Positions 37,316 to 49,191 of a stretch of DNA of 64,000 bases are shown here, in pieces. The position numbers and the translations under genes were made by a program. The DNA is taken from NCBI RefSeq assembly GCF_023705585.1, contig NZ_BOQE01000001.1:2822710-2886709 (forward strand), read 5' to 3'. The stretch is from Collibacillus ludicampi (GTDB taxonomy: Bacteria; Bacillota; Bacilli; Tumebacillales; BOQE01). Every line of letters begins with the position of its first letter. Within the stretch, counting starts at the first letter, position 1. The notes under the pieces were generated by a model that saw nothing but the letters and a program-made list of their open reading frames with translations, was not told the origin of the DNA and made no database searches.

Positions 37316-37420
37316 GAGAAGCAATCATCCTTTACAATCTTGAAGAAATAATTTTTTTCTAGTTAGTCCCCCATGCCGCAAGCGGCACCATCAGAGGATG
37401 AAAAGTGTCTTCATCGAGTG

Positions 37421-37634
37421 GGCGTAATGCTTTGCGTGAGACAGCGACTTTGGAGGTTGTCTCGCTTCCTTTCGGATGTAAAAGGGTATATGCATTGCGC
37501 GTAACAGCGACTTTGAAGGTCGTCTCGCAACATATGATTATGATTCCATGCGAGACGACCTTCACGGAGCATAAGCGCAATGCATATACCCGCTGAAACG
37601 ACCTCCACGGAGCGCGAACGCAAAGCATACGCCC
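37421..37634. repeat. fold-back repeat, double-unit copy
   Basis: About 214 bp, nearly the reverse complement of the 47.4-kb copy (about a dozen differences by eye, only two in the central ~130 bp). From the outside in: GGGCGTAATGCTTTGCG / CGCAAAGCATACGCCC, TGGAGGTTGTCTCGC / AAACGACCTCCA, GGGTATATGCATTGCGCG / GCGCAATGCATATACCC, and the core GGTCGTCTCGCA / TGCGAGACGACC around an ~18-nt loop. A frame open on the minus strand (37359-37628) is judged non-coding. The flanking 37316-37420 and 37635-37701 show nothing else. Confidence 0.88.
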
Positions 37635-37701
37635 GCCAAACTACACATTTTCAAAGTAGTGTCTCCATCCGGTTCGGTTACTACACGGTGTTGAAAATTG
37701 T

Positions 37702-46661: not shown

Positions 46662-47273
46662 TCAGTGACCGATGATGATGAGAAAAACCCCCTGAACGAG
46701 CCCGATCCCAAGGCCCATATAAAACCCCAACCATTCGATGAAAGTCAGCTCTTGTCGAGCCACTTTGCGCACCAATTGTTCCAACTCGACAAAGTCCAGT
46801 TGAATCAGTCGGTCATGGACGATTTGGCGAATGGGAATCATGTTTTGCAGGCGTTCAATATCATCGTATAAGTTATGGATCAGATGATTGAGCTCTTTAG
46901 AAACTATGTCGGATATGTATTCGAGCGCGGGTATGCGAATCGCCGTTGGCATCCACCGAGGAAATTGTACTTCTACTCGTTCCATGATTCGTTCGTGAAT
47001 CATTTTCGTGGCCTGTTGCAACAATTCCGCGTCCTTAATGAATTTTTTTATGTCTTCCTGGGAGAGAAGATCTGTTTCTACAACTTCCGCTAGACTATTG
47101 GCTATATTTTCTTTTCGTTTGGGTAGAACACCTTGAATTTGCCATCGTGTACCCCATACGCGGTAAGGGTTTTTTGGATTAAACAACAACCAGATGGCCA
47201 ATTTGTTTGTTATCCAGCCGTGCAGAGCGCCGATCAATGGAAGGATAAGGAAATCGACAACATAACGGTTCAT
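46662..47273 (-). CDS. DUF445 family membrane protein
   Basis: 203 residues. N-terminal helix with ILPLIGALHGWITNKLAIWLLF, whose GWxTNxLAIxxLF is the DUF445 signature, then FNPKNPYRVWG and WQIQGVLPKRKENIANSLAEVV. A long helical middle and a C-terminal helix (FIEWLGFYMGLGIGLVQGVF) complete the fold. Shorter than the ~380-aa YheB-type members. Role unknown. Rev-strand AAAGGAG precedes ATG 47273. Confidence 0.85.
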   Translation of the reverse strand: MNRYVVDFLILPLIGALHGWITNKLAIWLLFNPKNPYRVWGTRWQIQGVLPKRKENIANSLAEVVETDLLSQEDIKKFIKDAELLQQATKMIHERIMERVEVQFPRWMPTAIRIPALEYISDIVSKELNHLIHNLYDDIERLQNMIPIRQIVHDRLIQLDFVELEQLVRKVARQELTFIEWLGFYMGLGIGLVQGVFLIIIGH

Positions 47274-47400
47274 GTTTGGGCTCCTTTTTCATACATGTCA
47301 CATCAATGTTATGAAAGTGTATCATACATGTATTATACCCGCTTTTTTTCTCATCTTCACAAGCCTATTTTGTTTGACTAGAGATGCGAAAAATCTGTGC

Positions 47401-47722
47401 TTGGGTGGATGATATCGCTTTGCGCTTGGGTTCTTTGGGGCATATGCTTTGCGCTCATGCTCCGTGGAGGTCGTTTCAGCGGGTATATGCATTGCGCTTA
47501 TGCTCCGTGAAGGTCGTCTCGCATGGAATTATAATCATATGTTGCGAGACGACCTTCAAAGTCGCTATTACGCGCAATGCATATACCCTTTTACATCCGA
47601 AAGGAAGCGAGACGACCTCCAAGGTCGCTATTACGCCCAAAGCATATGCCCTCTTCTCGTTTAAAGGAAGCGGAACGACCTTCCACTCACCTCTGCGCTG
47701 CAAAGCGCTATCATCCACCCAA
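47401..47722. repeat. fold-back repeat, long copy with terminal inverted repeats
   Basis: 322-bp nested inverted repeat in a 580-bp gene-free gap (47274-47853). Ends: TTGGGTGGATGATA (47401-47414) / TATCATCCACCCAA (47709-47722), 14-bp perfect. Inside lie two direct ~48-bp units (TATGCTTTGCGC..CTCCGTGGAGGTCGTTTC and TATGCATTGCGC..CTCCGTGAAGGTCGTCTC), then the same two in inverted order. Inner 47438-47650 matches the 37.4-kb copy in opposite orientation. A 118-codon frame (47384-47740) crosses it and is judged non-coding. The rest of the gap shows nothing else. Confidence 0.9.
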
Positions 47723-47840
47723 AAGCCACTCTGTTACTAGTGGCAGACTTAAGCTTCTCTTTCGCATAAGAAACTCTTCATTCTCTAATGGTTCCATTTG
47801 TTACCGATGAGAAAGAGTAGCATTGGAGTCACAAGATAAA

Positions 47841-47881
47841 AACGACCGCCTCTTCATCTTTCAGGGCGGTCGTTGTCTTTT
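47841..47881. terminator. bidirectional terminator at the end of the 69-aa gene
   Basis: AACGACCGCC (47841-47850) pairs with GGCGGTCGTT (47865-47874). Plus side is followed by GTCTTTTTTT, minus side by TTTTATC. The right arm encodes the last codons of the minus-strand gene and the loop holds its stop codon. Confidence 0.82.
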
Positions 47882-48063
47882 TTAGGGATGTAGGGGACAC
47901 TTGAGAAGAGATCGGCAAATGTCTGCTGATCCTCGTGCAGATGGTTGCTTTTATCAGGAAGTCCCATGAGATGGAGCAATTCCTCGTTCATTTCTTCCAT
48001 TTGTTTTTGCGCGAGTTGTTCCAGAGTATCTTTTTTTATTTGAAAATATTTTTCGTTTCGCAT
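47854..48063 (-). CDS. hypothetical protein, 69 aa
   Basis: Not recognised. Rev-strand GAAGGAG lies 9 nt before ATG 48063. The product is soluble, charged and helical (KKDTLEQLAQKQMEEMNEELLHLMG) with a polar tail (FADLFSSVPYIPKKDNDRPER). The terminator hairpin overlaps its stop codon, which supports real expression. Next upstream on the same strand is another tiny gene (48147-48284), so a two-gene unit is possible. Confidence 0.6.
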   Translation of the reverse strand: MRNEKYFQIKKDTLEQLAQKQMEEMNEELLHLMGLPDKSNHLHEDQQTFADLFSSVPYIPKKDNDRPER

Positions 48064-48146
48064 GCTGTGTCTCCTTCGCGTGCGATTTTATATCCATCGT
48101 TTCTTGGGACGAGGAAACGAACCGCGTCCCAAGAAACTCCTTACAT

Positions 48147-48284
48147 TCATCTTTCAATCGGATTTCCATTATCGTCTTCTCGTTTGTAACCATCATAAGC
48201 GACAAGGATCACGCCTAACTGTGATTCCAAATCATTGATCATTTTCTTTTGCTCTTCCGTGAGGCTTGCCAGATGATACGTCAA
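48147..48284 (-). CDS. hypothetical protein, 45 aa
   Basis: TTG 48284 preceded by AAGGGGGTGGC at good spacing. Product TYHLASLTEEQKKMINDLES followed by QLGVILVAYDGYKREDD, soluble and acidic/helical at the N-terminus. Not recognised. It lies 83 nt upstream of the 69-aa gene on the same strand. The start codon is rare, but the Shine-Dalgarno site and uninterrupted, protein-like composition favour a real gene. Confidence 0.55.
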   Translation of the reverse strand: MTYHLASLTEEQKKMINDLESQLGVILVAYDGYKREDDNGNPIER

Positions 48285-48513
48285 GGTAGCCACCCCCTTG
48301 TCACGTGTTCGCGGATAGTTTTACCGAAAGGGGGGAGCTTCAAACAGCCTTTACGTTCCATCGTCACCAATTGGCGCATGAATAAGAAGAGGGGCGTGAA
48401 ATGTAGAGCTCCTCTTTTTGCGTCCATAAGAAGAGCATAACGGGACTGTGAAAGTATGCTAGAATAATAGAGAACTGGCATCAAAATAGGATTGTAGGAA
48501 GTGTATTGAAGGT

Positions 48514-49191
48514 ATGGCGATTTTGAAAAACGATTGGGCACCTTTGTTAGAACAAGAATTTGAAAAACCGTATTATTTACGGTTGAGACGTTTTTTAATT
48601 GAAGAGTATAGTACCCGCGTGATTTATCCTGACAAATATGAAATTTATACGGCTTTACATTTAACATCATTTGAAAACACGAAGGTCGTGATCATCGGAC
48701 AGGATCCTTACCACGGTCCAGGGCAAGCTCATGGGCTAAGTTTCTCCGTCAAACCGGGAGTAAGTATTCCTCCTTCCTTACAAAACATTTTTAAAGAGTT
48801 GCATGATGACCTGGGATGCTACATCCCCAATAATGGATATCTTGTGAAATGGGCGGAACAAGGGGTACTGATGTTAAATTCGGTTTTAACCGTACGCGCA
48901 GGTATTCCCAATTCTCATAAAGGGATGGGGTGGGAGACGTTCACAGACAAGGTGATCACGACGCTTAATCAAAGAGAGAAACCGGTGGTTTTCATCCTTT
49001 GGGGGAAACATGCGCAGGAAAAGAAAAAACTGATCACATCCGCTAAACATTTTATCATTCAATCTCCGCATCCGAGTCCCTTTTCGGCAAATCGAGGCTT
49101 TTTGGGCAGCCGTCCGTTCTCAAGAACCAATGAATTTTTGAAAAAAATTGGGGAAGAAGAGATCGATTGGCAGATACCGAATCTAACCTAA
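48514..49191 (+). CDS. ung: uracil-DNA glycosylase (family 1)
   Basis: Removes uracil from DNA. 225 residues with the catalytic water-activating loop [21 protein letters not shown], the uracil-binding [22 protein letters not shown] and the DNA-intercalating [18 protein letters not shown]. Complete and of normal length. A ribosome site of the form GGAAG lies a little far upstream. It converges on the TSUP gene across a strong hairpin. Confidence 0.95.

What the first reader, a model, noticed from the sequence alone, without database searches (positions are those of the whole stretch)
47401..47722. Nested fold-back repeat built of doubled ~48-bp units with 14-bp terminal inverted repeats
The element reads unit-unit-inverted unit-inverted unit around a short spacer. 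The two direct units share TATGC(T/A)TTGCGC..ATGCTCCGTG(G/A)AGGTCGT(T/C)TC, and all four copies can pair into one ~150-bp-arm hairpin. Ends are TTGGGTGGATGATA/TATCATCCACCCAA. It has no transposase, lies between genes, and matches none of the classic repeat families I can name (not REP, BOX, ERIC or CRISPR). It could be a MITE, a mobile structured-RNA element, or a chromosomal protein-binding site.
Basis: seen in the sequence. Interest (0 to 1): 0.72.

Follow-up and report, generated by a model that had tools for sequence, protein, structure and literature searches.

The report
Bridge-RNA-type miniature transposons with nested hairpins
The hairpin is one of roughly 145 copies of a small gene-less mobile element whose two ends match IS110-family insertion sequences, which insert by means of a guide RNA, so it appears to be a parasite that borrowed that machinery from a relative now almost gone from this genome.

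Summary
The fold-back is real, but its 14-bp ends are internal. It is the hairpin core of a ~442-bp element (window 47378-47819, minus strand), a decayed member of a dispersed family: 149 left-end motifs in the genome against 4 for the control pattern. Intact copies read: a 43-nt left end beginning at TAG, a nested hairpin, and a right end like ATTTTCAARRTAG. A like left end (79-93% identity) and right end (ATTTTCARGATAG) bound complete IS110-family elements in other genomes and in named Alicyclobacillus plasmids. Those elements carry bridge-RNA-like loops that match their target and right end (permutation p = 5e-5 and 0.0015). The hairpin family shows neither recombinase nor such loops; the genome keeps a 127-bp relic of a matching recombinase. 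Two other genomes carry ~61-65-bp elements made only of these two ends. Best reading: IS110-family MITEs, moved in trans by a recombinase and bridge RNA now lost. Hairpin levels are modular (106-bp size ladder, matched arms), and orientation follows replication (79 of 104). What the hairpin does is open. I found no description of natural IS110 MITEs in the library searched.

The parts
47378..47819 (-). whole element (class A, two nested levels beyond the base; decayed ends), left end at 47819, right end at 47378
   Evidence: boundaries set by eye on the sequence printed against intact copies; script extraction (left-end motif at 47790 with 3 mismatches, right end with 6)
47773..47819 (-). decayed IS110-type left end (intact form TAG[C/T]CC.CCATGCCGC..GCGGC.CCATCAGAGGATGAAAAG); TAG reads TAC here
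   Evidence: intact form matches IS110 left ends
47723..47772 (-). class A lead sequence (~50 nt) between left end and hairpin
   Evidence: conserved in class A copies
47401..47722 (-). nested hairpin (the reported finding)
47607..47669 (-). outer 63-bp arm unit
   Evidence: direct repeat D1
47544..47606 (-). inner 63-bp arm unit
   Evidence: direct repeat D1
47524..47542 (-). apical loop
   Evidence: between arms of inverted repeat I4
47481..47523 (-). inner 43-bp arm unit
   Evidence: direct repeat D2
47438..47480 (-). outer 43-bp arm unit
   Evidence: direct repeat D2
47378..47400 (-). decayed right end (intact form CACTNNTTTTCAARRTAG)
37364..37659 (+). second, intact copy in the window (class B, one extra level): exact left-end motif and exact right end ATTTTCAAAGTAG

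Best explanation
The element is a non-autonomous (MITE-like) derivative of a bridge-RNA-guided IS110-family insertion sequence. SHOWN by sequence: more than 100 dispersed copies; both ends shared with full IS110 elements elsewhere; no recombinase gene and no detectable IS110-like bridge RNA inside; a TAG at the left boundary in 56 of 76 copies where that boundary can be placed; some copies abut and share one TAG; a relic of a matching IS110 recombinase gene in the same genome. INFERRED: an IS110 recombinase and its bridge RNA once acted in trans, joined the right and left ends into a circle at an AG core and recombined it into TAG sites that resemble its own right end; the partner was then lost. 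INFERRED: hairpin levels were gained by recombination between copies. The inner hairpin is one contiguous stretch anchored by repeated AGGTCGTCTCGC/GACGACCT motifs, so one conversion tract adds a matched 63+43-bp level. The hairpin's role, if any, is unknown. It may be neutral cargo kept paired by self-correction.
For: Copy number: 149 left-end motifs against 4 control matches; in the stretches fetched, 115 of 126 left-end hits carry the class A or B hairpin start and 104 of these also a right end. Left boundary: TAG in 56 of 76 placeable copies, in 3 of 76 in a control window ten bases upstream. Left end: 13 of 150 other genomes match it, 79-93% identity over short stretches, best E 5e-8. Of 9 such places refetched, 6 have left end, IS110 ORF signature and right end in order (Pfam DEDD_Tnp_IS110 and Transposase_20 for two of these ORFs), and two G006 copies are 99.8% identical over that 1592-bp span in different flanks. 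Named IS110 elements in Alicyclobacillus and, more weakly, Paenibacillus plasmids share the ends. In these IS110 elements the first loop matches the target and the second the right end (p = 5e-5 for 9, 0.0015 for 8). Relic: 127 bp, 74% nucleotide identity to L085. Two-end elements of ~61-65 bp in G096 (6 places) and G122 (4 places), genomes that also hold such IS110s. Published: IS621 recombines a 22-bp donor when its bridge RNA is supplied in trans (PMC11208160, section 8); ISEc11 cargo between its ends moved with transposase and RNA in trans (PMC11187229, passages).
Against: No intact partner was found: none of the three other IS110-type genes of the genome shows these ends within 1.5 kb. 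No empty site could be shown: the nearest genomes listed share only the order, and 53 joined flanks gave no convincing restored gene. 20 of 76 placeable copies lack the TAG. The hairpin has no clear homology to the IS110 left region or tail, so its origin is unexplained. Left-end homology is only ~42 bp and right-end ~13 bp. The window copy itself reads TAC instead of TAG at the left. Absence of the hairpin in relatives is weakly tested: one search scored at most four candidates per genome.
Confidence: 0.87

Rival explanations
1. The hairpin is a functional structured RNA (or its gene) that spread on IS110 ends: the strand from left end to right end is transcribed and its pairing is under selection.
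For: Stem columns are more conserved than the apical loop (0.982 vs 0.876 in class B; 0.968 vs 0.880 in class A) and, in class A, than the lead (0.853); in class B the five lead columns are 0.988. Single changes in stem pairs give G-U more often than A-C: 24 against 8. Double-sided compensatory changes occur, at 2 of 50, 4 of 44, 9 of 83 and 6 of 89 pairs in four length classes.
Against: With G-U forbidden in folding, the excess is 77 to 53, p = 0.04, on related copies. Strand-biased mutation could cause it, because copies are co-oriented with replication. No Rfam family. No promoter or transcript was tested. DNA self-correction of palindromes gives the same compensatory pattern.
Confidence: 0.2
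2. It is a REP/BIME-type or IS200/IS605-type element moved by a Y1 (HUH) transposase: GTAG next to a hairpin, extragenic, tandem.
For: GTAG-like tetranucleotide beside a GC-rich hairpin at the left end; tandem copies sharing the tetranucleotide. Replication-linked orientation is a habit I recall for IS200/IS605.
Against: No PF01797 match in the genome (0 of 1). The single TnpB gene has none of these ends nearby. Left and right ends match IS110 elements instead.
Confidence: 0.04
3. The 42-bp left end is a pre-existing repeat that IS110 elements use as a target, and the hairpin family is unrelated to IS110.
For: IS110 elements are known to target REP sequences (PMC11208160, passages); in G122 one IS110 sits in the right end of another.
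Against: In full IS110 copies the 42 bp lies inside the element: two G006 copies align from TTAG through the 42 bp to the right end and differ outside. Both ends, not one, are shared. The ~61-65-bp elements of G096 and G122 join the same two ends.
Confidence: 0.05

Closest known systems
IS110-family insertion sequences with bridge RNA (IS621: PMC11208160, start of abstract, passages and section 8; ISEc21/ISEc11: PMC11187229, passages)
   Same: Left and right ends; AG core (the complement of the CT core of IS621, by inference); insertion of one copy into the right end of another
   Different: No recombinase gene and no detectable bridge RNA; carries a nested hairpin; over 100 copies
Bacterial MITEs of other insertion sequences (for example MITEPye1 of the IS1182 family, PMC11578231, passages)
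   Same: Short, no gene, ends of an autonomous element, strong fold
   Different: Ends are asymmetric IS110 ends, without the terminal inverted repeats and direct repeats that bound MITEPye1; a guide RNA would be needed in trans
REP/BIME sequences with RAYT transposases (PMC2817692, search listing only)
   Same: Extragenic palindromes in >100 copies; tetranucleotide at the foot (recalled); the ~61-65-bp elements of G096 and G122 look very like them
   Different: No Y1 transposase found; ends are IS110 ends

Membership tests
IS110 family (as non-autonomous derivative) | Left end shared with IS110 elements | tested here: met
   ~42 bp, 79-93% identity, 13 of 150 other genomes; 6 places with left end, ORF and right end in order
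IS110 family (as non-autonomous derivative) | Right end shared with IS110 elements | tested here: met
   ATTTTCARGATAG-type end in IS110 loci and ATTTTCAARRTAG-type in the family; short, 13 bp
IS110 family (as non-autonomous derivative) | Matching DEDD/Transposase_20 recombinase in the same genome | tested here: inconclusive
   Only a 127-bp relic of the matching lineage; three other IS110-type genes without these ends nearby
IS110 family (as autonomous member) | Bridge RNA encoded in the element | tested here: not met
   Of 20 comparisons with the IS110 left region or tail none exceeds the shuffle maximum; 5 exceed the shuffles' 95% point, 4 of them in tails that include the shared right end. 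By sequence comparison only; an unrelated guide RNA is not excluded
IS110 family (as non-autonomous derivative) | Circular intermediate and scarless insertion | not testable with these tools
   No relative with empty sites; needs PCR or reads
MITE | Short, gene-less, multi-copy, ends of an autonomous element | tested here: met
MITE | Terminal inverted repeats and target duplication | tested here: not met
   True ends are asymmetric; the 14-bp inverted repeats are internal. A target duplication could not be tested without empty sites. IS110 elements lack terminal inverted repeats (PMC3852290, passage), so this feature is not expected for an IS110 derivative
IS200/IS605 or REP-RAYT | Y1 transposase | tested here: not met
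   PF01797: 0 of 1 genome
Known Rfam RNA | Match above gathering score | tested here: not met
   window 46801-48300: 7 matches, none above gathering score; two family loci and three IS110 loci: the only match above gathering score is a tRNA beside the A. dauci element

The most novel reading that the evidence does not exclude
A natural class of bridge-RNA-dependent MITEs, from ~61-bp two-end elements to hairpin elements of about 470 bp, all lacking recombinase and guide RNA; in this genome the lost partner's target loop read its own right end, so the family targeted itself and built tandem arrays, and its nested hairpin is a transcribed RNA under selection rather than idle cargo.
Probability: 0.2. 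Interest if true: 0.85.

Novelty: new variant of a known kind. Interest (0 to 1): 0.62.

Why it matters
Bridge RNAs are known to work in trans in laboratory assays; this family and the two-end elements of two other genomes suggest that nature uses it too, and that about 43 bp plus 13 bp of ends suffice. They give ready natural donor and target sets (over 100 insertions) for learning IS110 end and target rules. The matched, quantised hairpin levels and the replication-linked orientation are open puzzles that can be tested directly.

Tried and rejected
Rejected: Y1/REP-RAYT origin; TnpB/IS605 origin; known RNA family; presence in the plasmid and phage collections (window hairpin; a 51-bp left-end piece and a 67-bp IS110 left end against plasmids: no match in any); homology of hairpin and bridge RNA (counts in the membership test); orientation bias explained by target abundance (168 vs 144 candidate sites at a loose cut-off, 62 vs 45 at a strict one, against 79 vs 25 insertions; a part may be explained); hairpin as insulator between convergent genes (17 convergent, 26 divergent, 51 co-directional, 10 unclear of 104; the ORF caller was crude and distances of 0-2 are unreliable).

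Led nowhere: the scan of named genomes for a hairpin 19-mer gave 11 stretches with one match each, in unrelated organisms, which I take for chance without having computed it (the tool says the window's own genome may be left out). An empty site by joined flanks: 4 of 53 copies gave an open frame across the join, none convincing. The count of copies abutting an upstream right end (29 of 53) used a loose pattern and is not relied on; 9 of 53 are directly followed by another left end. In one search a TAG was required to place the boundary, so its TAG column is circular; one search repeats the count without that filter. My first impressions that L071 has foreign internal DNA and that the G014 match was spurious were wrong: one search shows L071 is an internal deletion derivative of the IS110 of its genome, and one search shows a left end with small gaps in L064 (G014).

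Failed scripts: searches (time limit; errors), rerun. One search was returned because a translated reference held a stop; not repeated.

Full report
1. The observation. The inverted arms and direct units are there and fold far better than shuffles: -169.4 kcal/mol against a mean of -94.6, z = -13.2. Unit spacing is 43 bp in one arm and 63 bp in the other, not ~48.

2. A dispersed family. Searching the window's own genome (G000, 4,090,762 bases, 7 contigs) with 47401-47722 gave 158 aligned pieces although only 40 of 198 candidates were scored. Reading the copies showed conserved sequence beyond the supposed ends. The left-end motif CATCAGAGGATGAAAAGT with up to 3 mismatches occurs 149 times, the control pattern 4 times (about 100 of the 149 places were listed). 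In the 409,637 bases of contig 1 held, 126 hits with up to 4 mismatches were examined: 74 class A, 41 class B, 11 neither; 104 had a recognisable right end.

3. Anatomy of an intact copy, left to right: TAG[C/T]CC.CCATGCCGC..GCGGC.CCATCAGAGGATGAAAAG; in class A a ~50-nt lead; the nested hairpin; right end like CACTNNTTTTCAARRTAG (class A) or ACTACACATTTTCAARRTAG (class B). The window copy is a decayed class A copy on the minus strand, 47378-47819; an intact class B copy lies at 37364-37659.

4. Hairpin levels. Lengths fall on a 106-bp ladder: 69 of 104 copies within 6 bp of base, base + 106 or base + 212 (A 42 of 66, B 27 of 38; a uniform spread would put about 13% there); 12 more sit at steps that add 43 or 63 bp alone, and 23 fit neither. 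The longest is 612 bp, which may join two copies; the next is 473. In 13 balanced multi-level copies the signature triplet of the two arms of one level agrees 25 of 26 times, between different levels 5 of 26. So levels behave as matched modules. Because an inner hairpin is one contiguous stretch, a single conversion tract between copies could add a level; this is inference.

5. The ends are IS110 ends. Searching 151 genomes with a tandem A-B pair, 13 of the 150 others matched, at the left end of either copy, some with the last bases of the right end before it (79-93% identity, best E 5e-8; at most four candidates per genome were scored, so absence of the hairpin there is weakly tested). Of 26 loci from that search, 22 hold the left-end motif by an ungapped scan; the other four (L064, L065, L067, L074) show it with small gaps or more changes by eye. 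Nine of the 26 also show a GLDVHK-type IS110 ORF; several others stop at contig ends. Nine places were refetched: 8 hold the left end by ungapped scan, 7 the ORF signature, 6 left end, ORF and right end in order. Two copies in G006 are 99.8% identical over 1592 bp, from TTAG before the left end to just beyond the right-end TAG, in different flanks. The ORFs of L058 and L063 match DEDD_Tnp_IS110 (E 2e-41, 4e-39) and Transposase_20. Relatives annotated as IS110 family transposase lie on plasmids of Alicyclobacillus dauci (78.8% identity to the L058 protein), A. fastidiosus and Paenibacillus urinalis, with like ends (the left end is only 14 bases long in P. urinalis by alignment).

6. Bridge-RNA-like loops in those relatives. 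Downstream of the left end each IS110 has two guide-like loops. The first matches the insertion target up to the AG core: mean 6.4 bases in own pairs against 3.2 in mismatched pairs, 9 elements, none of 20,000 permutations as good (p = 5e-5). The second matches the element's own right end: 7.5 against 4.8, 8 elements, p = 0.0015. L087 (same element as L089) was dropped before the count; its own target shares only 4 bases. L085 and L090 also share only 4. L090 had no right end. For L091 the script took the second of two adjacent right-end motifs, which lowers its score. The loops were picked by motif and position in the light of published IS110 anatomy, not by a covariance model, and no Rfam family matched them.

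7. The hairpin family lacks both parts. Of 20 comparisons of its inside with the IS110 left region and tail none exceeds the shuffle maximum (one equals it); 5 exceed the shuffles' 95% point, 4 of them in tails that include the shared right end. The genome has three other IS110-type genes, none with these ends nearby, and one relic of the matching lineage: 127 bp, 74% nucleotide identity to L085, with a stop.

8. Targets. Without any TAG filter, 56 of 76 copies whose left end can be placed have TAG just before it, against 3 of 76 in a control window; 28 of 104 could not be placed. In 24 copies that have the TAG and no upstream right end by a loose pattern, the bases before it lean to T-C-A/T-A-G-G/A, like the family's own right end; 9 of 53 copies are directly followed by another left end. 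So right ends themselves serve as targets. In G122 an IS110 sits in the right end of another, and its first loop contains that sequence.

9. Two-end elements elsewhere. In G096 (6 places) and G122 (4 places) short elements consist of the left end, a few bases and a right end. Five of the ten were measured: 61, 61, 61, 62 and 65 bp with 7-11 bases between the ends, one with two changes in the right end; the others were read by eye, some with the last bases changed. The same genomes hold full IS110 elements. G008 holds one internally deleted IS110 (L071: left end, ORF fragment, right end). These support the idea that the ends alone suffice.

10. Orientation. The sign of GC skew in the fetched stretches changes near 1.45 and 3.55 Mb of contig 1; taking the G-rich strand as leading puts the origin at the first (dnaA was not sought; two of the twenty bins are near zero). 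Left end to right end then points with the replication fork in 79 of 104 copies, p = 1e-7: class A 47 of 66, class B 32 of 38. In copies with nearly perfect ends it is 26 of 40, in the rest 53 of 64 (Fisher p = 0.06). Candidate target sites lean the same way only slightly (168 to 144; 62 to 45 at a stricter cut-off). The window copy is one of the 25 exceptions.

11. RNA or DNA? Stems are more conserved than loops, and single stem changes favour G-U over A-C, 24 to 8; with G-U forbidden in folding it is 77 to 53. Copies are related and co-oriented, so neither count is decisive.

12. Literature. Searches for IS110 with MITE and bridge RNA (none), with miniature inverted-repeat and non-autonomous (5), IS110 family with MITE (13), bridge RNA with non-autonomous and recombinase (none), IS110 with miniature and MITEs (15), two of IS110, IS1111, seekRNA since 2023 (18) and Alicyclobacillus with miniature inverted-repeat (none) showed no natural IS110 MITE in what I saw: the listings, and passages of eight papers. 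The other listed papers were not opened. The family of ISMdi3, parent of MiniMdi3 (PMC2680597), was not stated in the passages read. Most subscription journals, bioRxiv itself and ISfinder were not searched. That IS110-type ends can be moved with guide RNA in trans is published (PMC11208160 section 8; PMC11187229 passages).

13. Verdict. A non-autonomous, amplified IS110-family derivative with a modular nested hairpin: a new variant of a known kind. Membership of the IS110 family as an autonomous element is not met (no recombinase, no detectable bridge RNA); that it works like an IS110 donor is the inference with the most support.

Noticed in passing
G096: L067, L183-L186; G122: L187-L190: REP-like elements of about 61-65 bp made only of IS110 left and right ends, 6 and 4 places
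   Followed up: partly
L071 (G008:C134:14503-14736): Internally deleted IS110: left end, ORF fragment, right end; parent in the same genome
   Followed up: yes
G000 contig 1: Strong replication-linked orientation of the elements, weaker in the copies with best-preserved ends
   Followed up: partly
L027 (G000:C1:706862-710079) and L050: One-sided expansion: several 43-bp units in one arm without as many 63-bp units in the other
   Followed up: partly
L051 (G000:C2:83541-83741): Single TnpB gene in a genome without a Y1 match, not linked to this family
   Followed up: yes
window 46662-47273 and 48514-49191: Neighbouring genes: DUF445 protein and uracil-DNA glycosylase
   Followed up: no
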